A DNA stretch of 64,000 bases, from assembly GCF_029369745.1 (NCBI RefSeq), contig NZ_CP120210.1:7316001-7380000 (forward strand), given 5' to 3'. Of the stretch, positions 1,420 to 8,742 are shown in pieces. Numbering within the stretch: position 1 is the stretch's first letter; the number at the start of each line of letters is the position of its first letter. The DNA is from Amycolatopsis sp. QT-25 (GTDB taxonomy: Bacteria > Actinomycetota > Actinomycetes > Mycobacteriales > Pseudonocardiaceae). The position numbers and the translations under genes are program-made. The notes under the pieces were generated by a model that ran no database searches, was not told where the DNA came from, and saw nothing but the letters and a program-made list of their open reading frames with translations.

Positions 1420-2862
1420 GTGGACGAAGTGACGGGCAGAACGGCCTCCGCGGAGTTCGTGGTGGTGGCGAACAGGCTTCCGGTGGACCTCGAACGGACC
1501 GCCGACGGGAGCAGGCGTTGGACGGCGAGCCCCGGCGGGTTGGTGTCGGCGCTCGAACCGTTCCTGCGCTCCCGCAAGGGCGCCTGGGTCGGTTGGCCCG
1601 GCGTGCCCGACGTCGAGGTGGAGGAGTTCGACGACGACGGTTTGGTCCTCCATCCGGTCTCCCTGACGTCGGACGACGTCCGCGACTATTACGAAGGCTT
1701 CTCCAACGCGACGCTTTGGCCGCTGTACCACGACGTGGTGGCCAGGCCGGTGTTCGACCGGAGCTGGTGGGAGTCCTACGTCCGGGTGAACCGGCGCTTC
1801 GCCGAGGCGAGCGCGAAGGTCGCCGCCGAGGGCGCGACCGTGTGGATCCAGGACTACCAGTTGCAGCTGGTCCCGGCGATGCTCCGCGAACTCCGGCCCG
1901 ACCTGCGGATCGGCTTCTTCCTGCACATCCCGTTTCCCCCGGTCGAGTTGTTCATGCAGATGCCGTGGCGGACCGAGATCGTCCGCGGCCTGGTCGGGGC
2001 CGACCTCGTCGGCTTCCACCGGCCGGGTGGCGCGCAGAACTTCCTCTGGCTGGCGCGGCAGCTCGCCGGTCTCGAGTCCAGCCGCGGCGCGGTCGGCATC
2101 CGCACCCGCCCCGGCCTGATGCAGGTCGGCGACCGCACGGTGCGGGTCGGCGCGTTCCCGATCTCCATCGACGCCATCGGCCTCGACAAACTCGCCAAGA
2201 CCAAGGGCGTCGCCGAACGCGCCGCCCAGGTGCGCCGCGATCTGGGCAATCCGAAGACGGTTTTGCTCGGCGTCGACAGGCTCGACTACACGAAGGGCAT
2301 CGACCTGCGGTTGCAGGCGTTCCACGAGCTGCTGCACGAAGGCCGCGTCCGGCCGGAGGACGTCACGTTCGTCCAACTGGCCACGCCGAGCCGCGAGCGT
2401 GTCGAGCACTACCAGCGGATGCGCGGCGACATCGAGCAGATGGTCGGACGGATCAACGGCGAATTCGCCCGCGTGGGTCATCCGGTCGTGCACTATCTGC
2501 ATCAGTCCGTGAACCGGACGGAGCTGGCCGCGTTCTTCTCGGCGGCCGACGTCATGGTGGTCACTCCCCTGCGTGACGGGATGAACCTCGTCTGCAAGGA
2601 GTACGTCGCCTGCCGCCACGACCTGGGCGGCGCGCTCGTGCTTTCGGAGTTCGCCGGCGCCGCGGCGGAGCTGACCAGTGCGCTCCTGGTCAACCCCCAT
2701 GACCTGGACGGGGTGAAGAACGCCTTGGAGACTGCCATTACGCTCGACCCCGCAGAGGGACGCCGCCGTATGCGCGCCATGCGTCGTCAGGTCCTCACGC
2801 ACGATGTCGACCGCTGGGCGCGTTCGTTCCTCCAAGCGCTCGGTGCCGAACCGGCCGACTAG
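1420..2862 (+). CDS. otsA: Trehalose-6-phosphate synthase OtsA
   Basis: This GT20 glycosyltransferase joins a nucleotide-activated glucose to glucose-6-phosphate to give trehalose-6-phosphate in the cytoplasm. Family motifs are intact: VVVANRLPV near the N-terminus, [42 protein letters not shown] and the C-terminal [15 protein letters not shown] chose the GTG at 1420 because a purine-rich GAGGGAG lies just upstream and it places the conserved N-terminal strand close to the start; GTG 1429 is a second in-frame option and longer versions would run back into the exporter gene. The product is 480 residues, normal for OtsA. The trehalose phosphatase fusion gene starts 52 bases downstream, so synthesis and dephosphorylation are encoded together. 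Confidence 0.95.
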
Positions 2863-2914
2863 GCAGTATTCGTACAACCGCCCCTCCCCCCGCATAGTTC
2901 CCGAGGAGAAATCG

Positions 2915-5443
2915 TTGACCGCCGAGGCACTGCCCGCCGAGTTGCGGCGCGCGATTGTCCAGGTCGCGCGGACCCCGCGGCTGCTGGTCGCCTGCGACTA
3001 CGACGGCACGCTGGCCCCGATCACGGCCAACCCGGACGAAGCCCGGCCGCTGCCCGAATCGGTGGGCGCGCTCAGGTCGCTGGCCGGCCTGCACGAGACG
3101 ACCACCGCGGTCATCTCCGGCCGCGCGCTGCGCGATCTCGCCACCCTGTCCCGTCTTCCGGCCGAGGTGAACCTGGTCGGCAGCCACGGATCCGAGTTCG
3201 ACATCGGCTTCATCCACGCGCTCGACGACAAGGCCCGTGAGCTCCACAGGCGGCTCGAGGCCGAGCTGGAGAACCTGGTGCTCGACGTGCCCGGGGTGTC
3301 GCTCGAAGTCAAGCCCGCGAGCATCGCGGTGCACGTCCGCCGCGCCGAGCACGAGGCGGGCCGCCGGGTCCTGCGCGACGTCCACACCGGCCCCTCGCAG
3401 TGGGAGGGCGTGTCCACGACCGACGGCAAGGAGGTCGTCGAGCTCGCGGTCGTCCAGACGGACAAGGGCCGCGCGCTGGACACCCTGCGTCACCAGGTCG
3501 GCGCGACGGCGGCGGTCTTCCTCGGCGACGACGTCACCGACGAGAAGGCGTTCGCCCGGATCTCCGGCCCGGACCTCGGTGTGAAGGTCGGCGACGGGGA
3601 AAGCCTCGCGCAATACCGCGTCCCGGACACCGTCGACGTCGCGATGGCGCTCGCGTTCCTTCTCGAAGAGCGGCGCAACTGGCTCTACGGCGAGCAGGCA
3701 CCGCCGATCGAGCGGCTTTCCATGCTGGCCAACGAACGGTCGGTCGCGCTGGTCACGCCGGACGCCCGGCTGACCTGGCTGTGCCACCCCGGCCCCGACG
3801 CGCCCGCGATCTTCGCGGATCTCCTCGGTGGCGCCGGCGCCGGTCACTTCTCGATCAAACCGCACCGCAACGGCCTGCCGCTCGGACAGCGCTACCTGCC
3901 GAACACGATGACGGTCGAGACCCGCTGGTCGCGGCTGCTCGTCACCGACTACCTCGAACCGGAGAGCCCCGCGCACCGCACGGATCTCGTCCGGGTGGTC
4001 TCCGGCGAGGCGGCGGCGGAGATCGTGTTCGCGCCGCGTCCCGAATTCGGTGGCGTGCCGGTGAAACTGGTCGCCAACGAGGACGGGATCCTGGTGCAGG
4101 GCACCTCGGAACCGTTCGCGCTGCGTTCGCCGGGTGTGGCGTGGGAGATCACCTCCGACGGGATGAACGACACCGCCACGGCACTCGTCACGCCCTCCCC
4201 GGAGAGCCCGGTGGTGCTCGAACTCCGGTGCGGCACGTCGGATCTCGGCGCGCACGAACTGTCCGAAGTGGAGCGACGGTCGCGGGCGGGCGACTACTGG
4301 AGCACCTGGGCGCAGACGCTCAAACTGCCCAGTGTCCAGACCGAACTCGTCGGCCGCTCGGCGCTGACCCTGCGCGGCCTGGTCAACACCGATACCGGCG
4401 GTGTGCTCGCGGCGGCGACGTCCTCACTGCCGGAGGAGATCGGCGGCGTCCGCAACTGGGACTACCGCTACTGCTGGATCCGCGACGCGGCCATGACCGT
4501 GCGCGAACTGGTCCACCTCGGCTCGACCGACGAGGCCGAAGGCTACCTCCGCTGGCTGCACGGTGTGCTGTCCACTTTGGCCGGTCCGGAACGGCTGCAC
4601 CCGCTGTACACCTTGGCGGGCAGCGTGATCGGCGCCGAAGCGGTCATCGAATCGCTGCCGGGCTACGCCGGTTCGCGGCCGGTCCGCGTCGGCAACCTGG
4701 CGAATCACCAGGTCCAGCTGGACGTGTTCGGCCCGGTCGTCGAACTCGTGCAGACGCTGGCGGAGGCGCGCGGCGAACTCCGCGACGAGGACTGGCAGAT
4801 GGTGCGCGCGATGGCCGAGGCCGTCACGCGGCGCTGGAACGAGCCGGACCACGGCATCTGGGAGGAGCGGCACGTGCCGCGCCACCGGGTGTACTCGCGG
4901 GTGATGTGCTGGGTGACCATCGACAGGGCGATCAAGCTGGGCGAGGTGTACGGCCGGGTGGTGCCGGGCGCGTGGCCTTCGCTGCGGGACGAGATCGCCT
5001 CGGACGTGCTGGACAAGGGCTGGAACGAAGAGGTCCAGGCCTTCACCACCGCATACGACGGCACAGACCTGGACGCCGCTTCGCTGTTCGTCGGGCTGAC
5101 CGGGCTGCTCGATCCGGCCGACCCGCGCTTCCAGTCCACGGTGACCGCGATCGAGGCGGAACTGCGCAGTGGGTCCACTGTGTACCGTTACCGCCGCGAC
5201 GACGGCCTTCCCGGCGGCGAGGGCGGTTTCCACATCTGCGCGGCCTGGCTCATCGAGGCGTACCTGCTCACCGGGCGGCGCACCGAGGCCGAGGAGCTGT
5301 TCACGCAGATCGTCGACGCCGCGGGCCCCACCGGCCTGCTGCCCGAGCAGTTCGACCCGATCGCGGAACGCTCGCTGGGCAACCACCCGCAGGCGTACTC
5401 GCACATCGGGCTGATCCGCTGCGCGAACCTGCTTTCCCGCTGA
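2915..5443 (+). CDS. otsB: OtsB trehalose phosphatase fused to a GH15 glucoamylase/trehalase-like domain
   Basis: Residues 1-250 form a HAD-type trehalose-6-phosphate phosphatase with motif I DYDGTLAPI (nucleophile Asp28, acid Asp30) and motif III GDDVTDEKAF near residue 204. From about residue 255 to the end is a full GH15 domain: NWDYRYCWIRDA near residue 514, HQVQLDVFGPVVE, a VYSRVMCWVTIDRAIKLG segment, and LLPEQFDP near residue 808. The start is TTG 2915, preceded by GAGGAGAA at correct spacing. Actinobacterial GH15 relatives include phosphate-dependent trehalases, so one polypeptide may make trehalose and hydrolyse it or a related glucoside; the GH15 substrate is inference. Product 842 residues, directly after otsA. 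Confidence 0.93.
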   Translation: MTAEALPAELRRAIVQVARTPRLLVACDYDGTLAPITANPDEARPLPESVGALRSLAGLHETTTAVISGRALRDLATLSRLPAEVNLVGSHGSEFDIGFIHALDDKARELHRRLEAELENLVLDVPGVSLEVKPASIAVHVRRAEHEAGRRVLRDVHTGPSQWEGVSTTDGKEVVELAVVQTDKGRALDTLRHQVGATAAVFLGDDVTDEKAFARISGPDLGVKVGDGESLAQYRVPDTVDVAMALAFLLEERRNWLYGEQAPPIERLSMLANERSVALVTPDARLTWLCHPGPDAPAIFADLLGGAGAGHFSIKPHRNGLPLGQRYLPNTMTVETRWSRLLVTDYLEPESPAHRTDLVRVVSGEAAAEIVFAPRPEFGGVPVKLVANEDGILVQGTSEPFALRSPGVAWEITSDGMNDTATALVTPSPESPVVLELRCGTSDLGAHELSEVERRSRAGDYWSTWAQTLKLPSVQTELVGRSALTLRGLVNTDTGGVLAAATSSLPEEIGGVRNWDYRYCWIRDAAMTVRELVHLGSTDEAEGYLRWLHGVLSTLAGPERLHPLYTLAGSVIGAEAVIESLPGYAGSRPVRVGNLANHQVQLDVFGPVVELVQTLAEARGELRDEDWQMVRAMAEAVTRRWNEPDHGIWEERHVPRHRVYSRVMCWVTIDRAIKLGEVYGRVVPGAWPSLRDEIASDVLDKGWNEEVQAFTTAYDGTDLDAASLFVGLTGLLDPADPRFQSTVTAIEAELRSGSTVYRYRRDDGLPGGEGGFHICAAWLIEAYLLTGRRTEAEELFTQIVDAAGPTGLLPEQFDPIAERSLGNHPQAYSHIGLIRCANLLSR

Positions 5444-5519: not shown

Positions 5520-5792
5520 TCAGCCGCCGGCGACGGACGGGATGATCTGGACCTCCTTCGCGTCGGCGAGGGAGGTCTTGGCGCCGTCGAGCCGACGGCA
5601 TTCCTCACCGTCCACGTAGAAGTTCACGTAGCGACGCAGCGCGCCGGTCTCGTCGCGCAGACGGCGTTCCAGCCCCGGGTGCTCGACGCCGAGCGAGTCC
5701 AAGACCGCGTCGAGCGTCGGCGCGTCGACCTCCAGCGTGCCCGCGCCACCCGCGAGCGGCCGCAGCATCGCGGGCAGCAGGACCCGGACCAC
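5520..5792 (-). CDS. MoaD/ThiS-type ubiquitin-like sulfur carrier protein
   Basis: A 90-residue beta-grasp protein of the MoaD/ThiS group. The chain ends in VAGG, the diglycine tail that is adenylated and thiocarboxylated in sulfur carriers of molybdopterin, thiamine or cysteine synthesis. The start is a GTG that follows the TAG stop of the upstream sialidase-fold gene without a gap (TAGGTG), so the two are translationally coupled; an AGGTGG just upstream serves as ribosome binding site. No E1-like or cofactor gene is nearby, so its acceptor is unknown. The coupling suggests a dedicated link with the neighbour rather than a role in general molybdopterin synthesis (inference). Confidence 0.85.
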   Translation of the reverse strand: MVRVLLPAMLRPLAGGAGTLEVDAPTLDAVLDSLGVEHPGLERRLRDETGALRRYVNFYVDGEECRRLDGAKTSLADAKEVQIIPSVAGG

Positions 5793-6845
5793 CTAGACCA
5801 CCTGGGCCCGCACGCACAGCACGTCCGGCAGATGCGCGGCCACCTGGCGCCAGGTGCCGCCTTCGTCGGGACTGGCCCACACTTCACCGGACCGAGTGCC
5901 GAAGTAGACACCACCCCGCGCGTCGACGCACATCCCGTCGCGCAGCACACCCGCGTAGAAACCCTTGTCCGGCAAGCCGTTCCCGAGTCCCGTCCAGGTC
6001 TCGCCCGCGTCCTCGCTGCGGTAGACGCGGCAGCGGCCCCCCGGCGGGAAGCGGAGTACGTCGGCCACCAAAGGGAAGTTGTAGACGGTGTCCGGTTCGG
6101 ACGGATGCACGACCATGGCGAAGCCGAAGTCGTTCGGCAGACCGTCGGCGATGGATTTCCACGTCTTCGCGTCGTCGTCGCTGCGGTAGACACCGCCGTG
6201 GTTCTGCAGGAAGAACCGCTCGGGGCGCGAGGGATGCATCGCGACCTTGTGCACGCACTGCCCGAATTCGGGCTCCTCACCGGGCAGGAATCCCGCGCTG
6301 ATCCCGCGGTTGGCCGCCGTCCAGCTCTTGCCGCCGTCCTCGGTGCGATAGACCCCGCCCGTCGACATGGCGACGGTGATCCGGCCGGGGTCCACGGGAT
6401 GCGGCAGGATCGTGTGGATCATCTGGCCACCACCACCGGGAGTCCAGTGTGGACGGTGCTCGTGGTCCCACAGGCCGCGGACGAGCTCGAAGGTTTCGCC
6501 GCCGTCTTCGGACCGGAACAGCGCGGACGGTTCGACACCCGCGTAGACGACGTCACCGGCGACGACGATCTGCCAGATGCCTTCGAGCGCCGTCTCCGTG
6601 TCCCCGGGGAAGGCCACCGGGGCGTGCTCGGGTTCGGACCAGGTCTCGCCGAAGTCGCCGGACGTCGCGATCGTGGGGCCGAAGTGTTCGTTGACCGCGG
6701 CGGCGTAGACCTTGGACGGTGTCAGCGCCACGGCCCGCACGGCCTCCATCGGGAACTTCGGTGTGGACAGTTCCCAGCTCTCCCTGTCCTCGCTGCGGGC
6801 GAGGAACAGGCCTTTCCTGGTGCCGATCCCCAGCTGGAACTCCAC
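5793..6845 (-). CDS. BNR/Asp-box beta-propeller protein (sialidase/sortilin fold)
   Basis: A 350-residue protein with at least five Asp-box repeats of the S-x-D-x-G-x-T-W type (FRSEDGGETF, YRTEDGGKSW, YRSDDDAKTW, YRSEDAGETW, SPDEGGTW), which predicts a sialidase-like beta-propeller. There is no signal peptide or membrane segment, so it is probably cytoplasmic, and I see no clear catalytic sialidase set; calling it a neuraminidase would overreach. The GTG start at 6845 has GAGGAGG seven bases upstream; the longer frame to 6890 has no such site. It is the first gene of a two-gene unit with the MoaD-like protein. Function unknown. Confidence 0.85.
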   Translation of the reverse strand: MEFQLGIGTRKGLFLARSEDRESWELSTPKFPMEAVRAVALTPSKVYAAAVNEHFGPTIATSGDFGETWSEPEHAPVAFPGDTETALEGIWQIVVAGDVVYAGVEPSALFRSEDGGETFELVRGLWDHEHRPHWTPGGGGQMIHTILPHPVDPGRITVAMSTGGVYRTEDGGKSWTAANRGISAGFLPGEEPEFGQCVHKVAMHPSRPERFFLQNHGGVYRSDDDAKTWKSIADGLPNDFGFAMVVHPSEPDTVYNFPLVADVLRFPPGGRCRVYRSEDAGETWTGLGNGLPDKGFYAGVLRDGMCVDARGGVYFGTRSGEVWASPDEGGTWRQVAAHLPDVLCVRAQVV

Positions 6846-7010
6846 GACGCCGCCTCCTCGGTAGGTGCTGTGACTCAGGTCACCTCGCACCGTACTACCA
6901 GAAGCGCGCGCAGGCGTCGCGCCGGCTGCTGTCCAAGGGGTCGTGGCCTTCGCCTTCTCGGGGAACGAAAGTCACAGACGAGCAGCCGGCGCGACGGGTT
7001 TCGGGAGCGG

Positions 7011-7967
7011 TCAGCTGCCGTTGATCAGGCGCAGGGCCAGATCGGGACTGAACTGGCCGGCTTCGACGTTCGGCGCGATCCCGCACTTGCCGTCGGAGTC
7101 ACCGGGCACCTTGACCCACAGCAGCATCTCGGCACCGCCGCCGGTCTGCGAGGTCGCCCCGAGCTTGCGCCCGGCCGGGTTGCACCACTCGGAGCCCAGC
7201 GGGCCGTTGCCGTTGCGGCTCGTGTCGATCACGAACGGCTTGGTGTAGCCGTACTTGCTCGACAGCGCGGCGCTGACGGCCTTGCCGTAGTTCGCCGAAT
7301 CGGTGGTGGTCTTGTAGTTCGACACGTTGATCGCGAGACCGCGGATCGACTTCACGCCGACGGCGTTGAGCCGGTCGGCCATGGTCGCGGCCGGAATCCA
7401 GGTCGAGTTGCCGCCGTCCATGTACGCCCAGGTGTTCGGGGCCTTCGTGGCGAACTGCTCCGCTGCGTACTTGAGCAGGTCGAAGCGGGTCTGGCGCTCA
7501 CCGGCCGGCAGGCAGTCGACCTGCGCGAGCGCGTCCGGCTCGATGACGACGACCGCGGGCTTGCCGCCGATGCCGGCGGCGAAGTTCGAGATCCAGGTGC
7601 GGTACGCCTCCGGGCTGCCCGCGCCGCCACCGGAGTGACCACCGCAGTCACGGCCGGGAATGTTGTAGGCGACCAGGATCGGCAGCTTGTCCGCGACGTC
7701 GGCGGCGTAGGTGTAGGTGTCGACGGCGGTCTTGACGTTCCCGCTCCAGTTGCCGAACCAGCGCGCGCCCGCCTTGGTGGCGATGGCGGCCTTGATCTTG
7801 TCGGCGGTGCTGCCCGGATGGTTCTTCACCCAGACGGCGGGGTTGGAGTTCGGGTCGACGTAGAAGCCGTTGGTCTTCTCAAGGGGGTTGCCGTCTGCGG
7901 CCTGAGCCGGCGCGGCGATGAGGGCCAGCAACGAAGCGGCCAGCAAACCGAGCGTCTTGATGCGCAT
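7011..7967 (-). CDS. Secreted GH6 cellulase (endoglucanase)
   Basis: Secreted beta-1,4-glucanase of glycoside hydrolase family 6. The ATG start gives a classical signal peptide (MRIKTLGLLAASLLALIAAP, cleavage after AQA near residue 24). GH6 hallmarks follow in order: LVAYNIPGRDCGGHSGG with the proposed acid Asp, VVVIEPDALAQVDCLP, a WAYMDGGNSTW segment, FVIDTSRNGNG, and the C-terminal EMLLWVKVPGDSDGKC. At 318 residues it is a bare catalytic domain without a cellulose-binding module. Cys pairs fit the family disulfides. It is probably monocistronic: a hairpin lies just upstream and the C39-like gene upstream has its own signal. Confidence 0.93.
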   Translation of the reverse strand: MRIKTLGLLAASLLALIAAPAQAADGNPLEKTNGFYVDPNSNPAVWVKNHPGSTADKIKAAIATKAGARWFGNWSGNVKTAVDTYTYAADVADKLPILVAYNIPGRDCGGHSGGGAGSPEAYRTWISNFAAGIGGKPAVVVIEPDALAQVDCLPAGERQTRFDLLKYAAEQFATKAPNTWAYMDGGNSTWIPAATMADRLNAVGVKSIRGLAINVSNYKTTTDSANYGKAVSAALSSKYGYTKPFVIDTSRNGNGPLGSEWCNPAGRKLGATSQTGGGAEMLLWVKVPGDSDGKCGIAPNVEAGQFSPDLALRLINGS

Positions 7968-8014
7968 AGACGCCAGCTTCGAGCTTTCCCGTACAAGATT
8001 CGTACAAACGCACG

Positions 8015-8066
8015 CCATTGGACACCTGCTTGCGGTGCGCGAGCATCGCAAGCAGGTGCCCAATGG
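8015..8066. terminator. Hairpin after the C39-like gene
   Basis: Inverted repeat with 20-nt arms, CCATTGGACACCTGCTTGCG at 8015-8034 and 8047-8066, with one G-U-compatible mismatch and a 12-nt loop. It is directly downstream of the C39-like gene on the minus strand, so terminator is the likely role. The stem core is the same as in the hairpin at 5457-5510. Confidence 0.7.
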
Positions 8067-8076
8067 CGAAAAGGGG

Positions 8077-8742
8077 TCAGGCCGAGTAGCCCTTCGGCGG
8101 GATCAGGGTGGCGAGCTGGTTGAAGGTGAGCCAGTAGATCTGGTTGCCGCCGAAGTTGGCCGGGTCGGCGATCTTCACCGTCATGTTGCCGCTGTTGTAG
8201 CCGATGATCGTGAAGTAGTGGTAGATCGTGTAGTTCGGGTAACCCGGCGGGTGGTTGTCCGCCGGGGCGACGATGTTCGCGACGAGCGCGTAGCCCCTGT
8301 CGACGTCCAGCACGATGTCGCGCCACAGGAGATCGCGCTGCGCCTGGGTCGGCGGGTCGTTCGGCATCTCCTTGGTCTCGTACCAGCCACCGGCGACGTG
8401 GTTGTTGAGCACGCGGGTGACCTGGCCGATCCAGTCGGTGCCGTTGGTGGTGGTCGGCAGCTCGTTCGCGAGCTGCTGCTGGCTCGGCGGGTTGCCGTTC
8501 TTCGCCGAGATGGCGATCCGGGTGGCGGCCGGGCCGCACCAGTACCCGGTCTGCTGGATCTGGTACTGGATGTTGAGCTCCGCGGCCGCCTTGACCCCTT
8601 CGACCTTGGCGGGCGGCGCCATCGACTGCACGAAGTCGGGCGCGGGTACGACGTTCTCACTTTGAGCGACGGCCACCGCCGGAGCGGTGATCAGTGCGGA
8701 CACCGCGAGCGCGGCGACGACCGCGGTCCTGAGTCGACGCAT
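8077..8742 (-). CDS. Secreted C39-like (papain-fold) peptidase-family protein
   Basis: A 221-residue secreted protein: signal peptide in residues 1-26 (ends AVAVAQ), then a C39-like domain. The likely catalytic Cys is in GYWCGPAATRIAI, the His in IYHYFTIIGYN, and the Asp in KIADPANFGG near the end, the order expected for this fold. Stand-alone secreted relatives are common in actinobacteria and have no assigned substrate; unlike bacteriocin-processing C39 domains it is not attached to a transporter. The start ATG is supported by the position of the signal sequence. It runs toward the hairpin at 8015-8066. Confidence 0.85.
   Translation of the reverse strand: MRRLRTAVVAALAVSALITAPAVAVAQSENVVPAPDFVQSMAPPAKVEGVKAAAELNIQYQIQQTGYWCGPAATRIAISAKNGNPPSQQQLANELPTTTNGTDWIGQVTRVLNNHVAGGWYETKEMPNDPPTQAQRDLLWRDIVLDVDRGYALVANIVAPADNHPPGYPNYTIYHYFTIIGYNSGNMTVKIADPANFGGNQIYWLTFNQLATLIPPKGYSA

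What the first reader, a model, noticed from the sequence alone, without database searches (positions are those of the whole stretch)
2915..5443. Trehalose phosphatase fused to a GH15 hydrolase
One 842-residue chain carries a complete OtsB active site and a complete GH15 domain, next to otsA. If the GH15 part is a trehalase, synthesis and breakdown are physically joined, possibly to tune trehalose turnover; if it acts on glucosides or glucosylglycerates, the fusion is a different pathway branch.
Basis: partly seen in the sequence, partly recalled or inferred. Interest (0 to 1): 0.5.

Follow-up and report, generated by a model that had tools for sequence, protein, structure and literature searches.

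The report
Trehalose-phosphate phosphatase fused to trehalase-like hydrolase
In many soil actinomycetes the enzyme that finishes making the protective sugar trehalose is built as one chain with a second enzyme that probably splits trehalose again, and relatives that broke one half but kept the other suggest that each half does its own job.

Summary
Window 2915-5443 encodes one 842-residue chain: OtsB-type phosphatase (about 1-250), TREH_N domain (251-462) and GH15 barrel (475-837), 52 bp behind otsA, both active sites complete. It is the only OtsB and only TREH_N protein found in the 8.0-Mb genome. It is not a one-off: it is usual in the window's family and occurs in other actinomycetes and in MAGs labelled as four further phyla. 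Its GH15 halves form one clade, apart from orthologues of the assayed mycobacterial trehalase.

Decay patterns separate the halves. In 10 of 71 fusions (Arthrobacter; Nocardiopsis plus one Glycomyces) the phosphatase site is destroyed while both GH15 glutamates stay; all 10 genomes have another OtsB near otsA. Three of four free-standing clade members sit in genomes where no OtsA or OtsB was found. One MAG shows the reverse. So the OtsB half is most likely the cell's T6P phosphatase, and GH15 is selected separately.

Trehalase activity is the best guess (about 0.65), not shown. The broken OtsB half in Arthrobacter is still under purifying selection, suggesting a non-catalytic role. My literature searches showed no paper on the fusion.

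The parts
1420..2862 (+). otsA, trehalose-6-phosphate synthase (GT20), GTG start, the only GT20 gene found in the genome
   Evidence: one PF00982 match in the genome, 506 bits, cut-off 32.5; NCBIfam PRK14501 546 bits and TIGR02400 537 bits, both below their equivalog cut-offs of 634 and 564.85
2903..2908 (+). GAGGAG ribosome-binding site in front of the TTG start
   Evidence: read from the sequence
2915..5443 (+). OtsB-TREH_N-GH15 fusion gene, 842 aa
2915..3664 (+). OtsB half, residues 1-250, HAD-type trehalose-6-phosphate phosphatase; the only PF02358 match in the genome
   Evidence: Pfam 27-217, TIGR00685 above cut-off, genome search, matches solved T6P phosphatases
2996..3004 (+). codons 28-30 (D-Y-D), HAD nucleophile and acid/base aspartates
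   Evidence: alignment column table; roles assigned by recalled motif
3665..4300 (+). TREH_N (trehalase-like N-terminal) domain, residues 251-462; the only one found in the genome
   Evidence: Pfam PF19291 347 bits, genome search
4337..5425 (+). GH15 catalytic (alpha/alpha)6 barrel, residues 475-837
   Evidence: Pfam PF00723; model aligns to GH15 structures, Z 37-39
4862..4864 (+). codon for E650, GH15 general acid by motif
   Evidence: kept in 69 of 71 fusion loci, the other two not reaching it; role by recalled motif
5345..5347 (+). codon for E811, GH15 general base by motif
   Evidence: kept in 67 of 71 fusion loci; A in L138, not reached in L135, L136 and L141; role by recalled motif

Best explanation
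This is a bifunctional cytoplasmic enzyme of the OtsA pathway. The N-terminal OtsB half removes phosphate from the trehalose 6-phosphate that OtsA makes, and is this cell's T6P phosphatase. The C-terminal TREH_N-GH15 half hydrolyses an alpha-glucoside by inversion, most likely trehalose, to two glucoses. Making both halves from one message next to otsA couples the capacity for synthesis to the capacity for turnover, so there must be a switch that keeps the hydrolase quiet while trehalose is wanted. Shown here by sequence: the architecture, both complete sites, the sole-OtsB status, and the decay patterns. Inferred: the phosphatase role (strong) and the trehalase substrate (moderate). Speculative: the switch.
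For: Both catalytic sets are complete, and OtsA and OtsB were each found once in the genome. Of 71 named loci with an OtsB half, 60 keep all eight HAD residues checked, one (L111) differs at T32 only, and 10 have a destroyed phosphatase site. All 10 of those genomes hold a second free-standing OtsB 0.1-4.3 kb from otsA. Of 39 searched genomes with an intact OtsB half, 8 have a free-standing second OtsB (Fisher p 5e-6 without correction for kinship; only two independent losses). Of four free-standing GH15 members inside the fusion clade, three lie in genomes with 0 OtsA and 0 OtsB matches (G462, G398, G634). Both GH15 glutamates stay in all 10 phosphatase-dead fusions. In one MAG (L138), where the fusion is the only OtsB found, the GH15 base and other site residues are lost instead. 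For the substrate: TREH_N domain; archaeal trehalases as best NCBIfam hits; fusion to OtsB and, in 35 of 79 named loci, otsA upstream on the same strand, including 8 of the 10 from outside Actinomycetota or unassigned; no GH37 trehalase match in this genome.
Against: The GH15 clade is split from the orthologues of the assayed mycobacterial trehalase by a long supported branch (100/99), so function is not carried over by orthology. The TreH1/TreH2 scores are far below cut-off, and the TreH1 model gave 327-377 bits to all six TREH_N-GH15 proteins tested, so it does not discriminate. GH15 persists in genomes where no OtsA was found, so its substrate need not come from this pathway. Mycobacteroides chelonae has both the fusion and a mycobacterial-type trehalase gene. 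The nearest solved GH15 structures are a glucoamylase, a dextran dextrinase, a glucodextranase and an isomaltose glucohydrolase, none a trehalase. The genome also has a GH65 gene that could degrade trehalose. Against the sole-phosphatase pattern: 8 of 39 genomes keep an intact fused OtsB beside a free one, and the fourth free-standing clade member (L146, Lentzea) lies in a genome that also has otsA and an 858-aa OtsB frame.
Confidence: 0.62

Rival explanations
1. The OtsB half is the T6P phosphatase, but the GH15 half hydrolyses another alpha-glucoside (for example short alpha-glucans, isomaltose-like disaccharides or a glucosylated compatible solute). The fusion then joins two steps of wider glucose-storage metabolism.
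For: The nearest solved GH15 folds are not trehalases. The clade is apart from the known mycobacterial trehalase. GH15 is kept in three genomes where no OtsA was found.
Against: TREH_N domain at high score; fusion to OtsB and, in 35 of 79 loci, otsA upstream, across several phylum labels, would be odd for an unrelated substrate.
Confidence: 0.25
2. The fused OtsB domain also, or mainly, regulates the hydrolase: it senses T6P (or serves as scaffold) and sets GH15 activity, and it persists as a pseudophosphatase in Arthrobacter and Nocardiopsis for that reason.
For: The dead Arthrobacter OtsB half evolves under strong purifying selection, dN/dS 0.05-0.12 in five pairs, near its GH15 half at 0.04-0.10. 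Nocardiopsis keeps a cap-less HAD core in frame.
Against: dS is high (up to 2.7) in the more distant Arthrobacter pairs. In six Nocardiopsis/Glycomyces pairs the OtsB value is 0.12-0.53, in four of them above the 0.04-0.22 range of ten live pairs, which looks like relaxed constraint. Constraint could be purely for folding. No ligand data.
Confidence: 0.2
3. The GH15 half is a passenger: both halves are ordinary stand-alone enzymes joined once by chance, with no coupling.
For: Each half can decay or be lost while the other stays, which shows that they are separable.
Against: The join is kept across 71 named loci with several phylum labels, and none of the four free-standing clade members showed an OtsB gene among the neighbours looked at.
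Confidence: 0.2

Closest known systems
OtsB / OtsB2, trehalose-6-phosphate phosphatase (TIGR00685; PDB 5gvx, 6upb)
   Same: HAD motifs, fold match and score above the curated cut-off
   Different: no fused glycosidase in OtsB2; OtsB2 has an N-terminal accessory domain instead (PMC11046441 passage)
GH15 trehalase of mycobacteria, MSMEG_4535 / Rv2402 type
   Same: TREH_N plus GH15, same catalytic glutamates
   Different: free-standing, in a separate clade, only a partial TREH_N match at 52-59 bits in three orthologues; ATP-sensitive and assayed in phosphate (PMC5371599 passages)
Archaeal trehalases TreH1/TreH2 (NF041084, NF041085)
   Same: best NCBIfam matches of the GH15 half, over nearly the full profile
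   Different: scores far below the equivalog cut-offs; free-standing (recalled); I had no archaeal sequences for the tree
M. tuberculosis OtsB1 (Rv2006)
   Same: an OtsB-type domain in one long chain (1327 aa, PMC11046441 passage) with a trehalose-related glycoside hydrolase (recalled)
   Different: its hydrolase domain is GH65 (recalled); no T6P phosphatase activity and no obvious mutant phenotype reported (same passage)
TPS-TPP fusions (Thermoproteus TPSP, PRK14501 type)
   Same: fusion inside the trehalose pathway
   Different: they join two synthetic steps; here a synthetic step is joined to a hydrolase (start of abstract of PMC3634074)

Membership tests
OtsB trehalose-6-phosphate phosphatase | HAD motifs I-IV complete (DxDGT, S, K, GDDxTD) | tested here: met
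   D28, D30, T32, S68, K184, D205, D206, D209
OtsB trehalose-6-phosphate phosphatase | score above curated cut-off of TIGR00685 | tested here: met
   123 versus 68 bits
OtsB trehalose-6-phosphate phosphatase | phosphatase activity on T6P | not testable with these tools
   needs protein
GH15 glycoside hydrolase | (alpha/alpha)6 barrel of GH15 type | tested here: met
   Pfam; model aligns to 1lf6, 9ju0, 1ug9, 5z3c at Z 37-39, rmsd 2.5-3.7
GH15 glycoside hydrolase | paired catalytic glutamates | tested here: met
   E650 and E811
GH15 alpha,alpha-trehalase TreH1/TreH2 equivalogs | score above curated cut-off | tested here: not met
   327 of 820 and 262 of 1000 bits
GH15 alpha,alpha-trehalase, mycobacterial type | in the same clade as MSMEG_4535 orthologues | tested here: not met
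   separate clade, 100/99; orthologues identified by sulfate-transporter neighbours (that synteny is recalled) and by the opening bases
GH15 alpha,alpha-trehalase | hydrolysis of trehalose | not testable with these tools
   needs protein
TREH_N domain proteins (PF19291) | score above gathering cut-off | tested here: met
   347 versus 23.1 bits
OtsB1 (Rv2006) type | GH65 domain fused to OtsB (recalled feature) | tested here: not met
   the hydrolase is GH15, no GH65 match in the chain

The most novel reading that the evidence does not exclude
The OtsB half is both enzyme and switch: T6P bound there shuts or opens the trehalase, so flux through OtsA decides directly whether trehalose is kept or burned. 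In Arthrobacter and Nocardiopsis a free OtsB took over catalysis and the fused copy became a pure sensor (a pseudophosphatase) riding on the trehalase.
Probability: 0.15. Interest if true: 0.65.

Novelty: new variant of a known kind. Interest (0 to 1): 0.42.

Why it matters
In Mycobacterium tuberculosis OtsB2 is essential because T6P is toxic (PMC5148154, abstract and passages). In Mycobacteroides chelonae and in several Rhodococcus and Nocardia genomes the only OtsB match found was this fusion, so the enzyme that clears T6P there is probably also a trehalase. The decay patterns (phosphatase destroyed in 10 genomes, all with another OtsB; OtsB half absent in three genomes without OtsA; hydrolase decayed once with the phosphatase kept) give a ready comparative set for testing how a cell avoids a futile cycle when synthesis and breakdown sit on one chain.

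Tried and rejected
Sequencing or frame artefact: rejected, because the same frame is open in relatives at 72-97% identity (list cut) and in named loci.

GH15 half dead: rejected for the window protein by sequence.

Orthologue of the mycobacterial trehalase: rejected. The identification of the MSMEG_4535 orthologues rests on recalled synteny and on the forward primer, which fits the start of the gene with 2 of 20 mismatches in L184 and 5 of 20 in L185; it does not fit L186, and the reverse primer fits none of the three near the gene end (5-6 mismatches). L186 is placed by the tree alone.

Using TreH1 scores to decide the substrate: led nowhere. Neighbours of free-standing clade members: mostly uninformative. 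One ROK-type kinase follows the gene in G398, with all NCBIfam scores below cut-off. A MalK/UgpC-type ATPase lies about 2 kb beyond the Lentzea copy, and an MFS protein lies near L139.

Claim that the fusion is the only way to degrade trehalose in this genome: dropped, because one GH65 gene is present (GH65 in 16 of 25 genomes searched). I did not search for TreS, TreY or TreZ.

I had no archaeal trehalase sequences, so the tree lacks them. The paper on archaeal GH15 trehalases (PMC4495195) is not held.

Rows dropped: the tree used 69 GH15 halves, a hand-picked part of those fetched; A2 used 44 of 48 non-redundant loci (of 79) plus the window. Genomes G634, G641, G642 and G643 (free-standing GH15 only), G625 (motif of its OtsB frame not read) and G656 (contig-edge fragment, no OtsA or OtsB match) were left out of the live/dead count. 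The longer second OtsB frames of Nocardia and Rhodococcus (1086-1454 aa), probably OtsB1-like, were not counted as free-standing and their second domain was not tested. In G640 the counted second OtsB lies in a 539-aa frame. Among the 71 fusions, L135 and L136 end at a contig end before the GH15 base; in L141 (Acidobacteria MAG) the frame stops early inside GH15, cause not examined.

Full report
WHAT IS THERE. The finding is correct at its coordinates. Window 2915-5443 is one open frame of 842 aa with a TTG start and GAGGAG six bases before it. otsA (1420-2862) lies 52 bp upstream on the same strand. All key HAD residues (D28, D30, T32, S68, K184, D205, D206, D209) and the two GH15 glutamates E650 and E811 are present (their roles are assigned from recalled motifs). 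An AlphaFold2 model with 45 sequences has mean pLDDT 90.5 and pTM 0.75. Its N-terminal part matches solved T6P phosphatases. Residues 262-842 match bacterial glucoamylase, dextran dextrinase and glucodextranase at Z 37-39, and residues 472-842 match isomaltose glucohydrolase at Z 37.5-37.6.

IN THE GENOME. The window lies in a single 8.0-Mb contig. PF02358 (OtsB) and PF00982 (OtsA) match once each, at this locus. TREH_N matches once, in this gene. PF01204 (GH37 trehalase) does not match (6 of 25 genomes in that call have short weak matches). A second GH15 gene encodes a protein without TREH_N, and one GH65 gene is present.

DISTRIBUTION. In 200 same-family genomes (own included), 197 have a match to the GH15 half. 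In 173 the best match has E 1e-189 or better; in 24 it is weaker (1e-106 to 2e-46; genera g3, g5, g42 and one genome each of g17 and g37) and 3 have none. All listed rows (72-97% identity, list cut) lie in frames of 834 aa or more. In a phylum-wide draw of 396 genomes, a match over both halves is listed in 5 besides the window (two candidates scored per genome). A scan of named genomes gave 79 loci, 71 with an OtsB half in frame: Amycolatopsis, Saccharopolyspora, Actinokineospora, Prauserella, Nocardia, Rhodococcus, Mycobacteroides, Williamsia, Micromonospora, Hamadaea, Arthrobacter, Nocardiopsis, one Glycomyces, one Streptomyces, Acidimicrobiia, and MAGs labelled Planctomycetota, Deltaproteobacteria, Acidobacteria and Chloroflexota. 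otsA lies upstream on the same strand in 35 of the 79 loci, which hold at most 4 kb of flank. Of 10 loci from outside Actinomycetota or unassigned, 8 have it; the other two (L078, L144) begin at a contig end.

TREE. In a tree of 69 GH15 halves, 38 rows (34 fusions and 4 free-standing) form one group on a 100/99 branch of length 0.55. The orthologues of MSMEG_4535 lie on the other side. They were identified by a sulfate transporter beside the gene (that this is the neighbourhood of Rv2402 is recalled) and by the opening bases against the published forward primer (limits told under Tried and rejected). The free-standing rows L041, L042, L139 and L146 lie inside the fusion group, which reads as loss of the OtsB half; some inner supports are modest. 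The root is a midpoint, and archaeal trehalases are missing.

DECAY AS A NATURAL EXPERIMENT. Of the 71 fusions, 60 keep all eight HAD residues checked and one (L111) differs at T32 only. In four Arthrobacter loci, motif I reads NYGG instead of DYDG and motif IV loses an Asp. In five Nocardiopsis loci and one Glycomyces locus, about 75 residues of the phosphatase (the cap, by position) are gone and GDDVTDE has become GGGDGEE or GGGEGEE. Both GH15 glutamates are intact in all ten. All ten genomes hold a second, free-standing OtsB close to otsA (0.1-0.3 kb in Arthrobacter, 2.7-4.3 kb in the others). Among 39 searched genomes whose fused OtsB is intact, 8 have a free-standing second OtsB, so a second copy does not always lead to decay. 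Fisher's test gives 5e-6, but only two independent losses stand behind the ten. Of the four free-standing clade members, three lie in genomes with no OtsA and no OtsB match (G462 and G398, 98% and 97% complete, and G634); the fourth, L146 of Lentzea, lies in a genome with otsA and an 858-aa OtsB frame beside it. The mirror case is one MAG, L138: HAD residues intact and its only OtsB match, but E811 is A, W521 is R and PQAYSH reads PSAAAH. Together these say that the OtsB half is tied to the OtsA pathway and that the GH15 half has a use of its own.

A LEFT-OVER ROLE FOR THE BROKEN HALF. Between Arthrobacter species the dead OtsB half has dN/dS 0.05-0.12 over five pairs, against 0.04-0.10 for GH15 (dS 0.5-2.7, high in the more distant pairs). 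Six Nocardiopsis/Glycomyces pairs give 0.12-0.53, four of them above the 0.04-0.22 seen in ten pairs with a live OtsB half. So the domain is clearly constrained in Arthrobacter (for folding, scaffolding or ligand sensing) and seems partly relaxed in Nocardiopsis.

MECHANISM. I take the protein to be the T6P phosphatase of this cell, joined to a hydrolase that most likely splits trehalose. T6P build-up is toxic in M. tuberculosis (PMC5148154, abstract and passages), which would explain why the OtsB half was only seen lost with a backup or without OtsA. The mycobacterial GH15 trehalase is inactive and ATP-sensitive in dormant cells (PMC5371599, abstract and passages), so a trehalase beside a trehalose pathway can be kept quiet. 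Whether phosphate released by the OtsB half helps the hydrolase is an open idea; a phosphate requirement of the mycobacterial enzyme is recalled, and here I saw only that it is assayed in phosphate buffer.

NOVELTY. In searches of the open-access library, no title, abstract start or passage that I saw describes an OtsB-GH15 fusion; listings 18 and 40 were cut (20 of 38 and 15 of 21 shown), and most listed papers were not opened. The passages I read of a survey of TPS/TPP evolution (PMC1769515) do not mention it. Database annotators probably know the architecture (recalled, not tested). The closest parallel is OtsB1 of M. tuberculosis, without known function (PMC11046441 passage). I rate it a new variant of a known kind.

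Noticed in passing
L075, L076, L114, L125 (Arthrobacter): OtsB half of the fusion has lost its catalytic aspartates yet stays under purifying selection, a likely pseudophosphatase domain.
   Followed up: partly
L119, L122, L123, L131, L133, L137: OtsB half reduced to a cap-less HAD core of about 176 residues; the Glycomyces fuscus gene (L123) is very close to the Nocardiopsis ones, suggesting transfer or a mislabelled genome.
   Followed up: partly
L138:4022-6544: Acidimicrobiales MAG with intact OtsB and a decayed GH15 site, the reverse case.
   Followed up: partly
L141:3926-6121: In an Acidobacteria MAG the fusion frame stops early inside GH15; break or sequencing error not examined.
   Followed up: no
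G016, G055, G068, G086, G108, G125: Some same-family genomes carry two fusion-type genes at about 73-75% identity to the window's GH15 half.
   Followed up: no
Nocardia and Rhodococcus genomes G606, G607, G609-G612, G615, G617: A second, very long OtsB-containing frame (1086-1454 aa), probably of OtsB1 type, coexists with the fusion.
   Followed up: no
window 5520-6890, minus strand: A ThiS/MoaD-like protein (90 aa) directly follows a BNR-repeat protein (365 aa), stop to start touching, just downstream of the fusion gene.
   Followed up: no
window 7011-8742, minus strand: A GH6 cellulase-like protein and a C39-like peptidase lie side by side.
   Followed up: no
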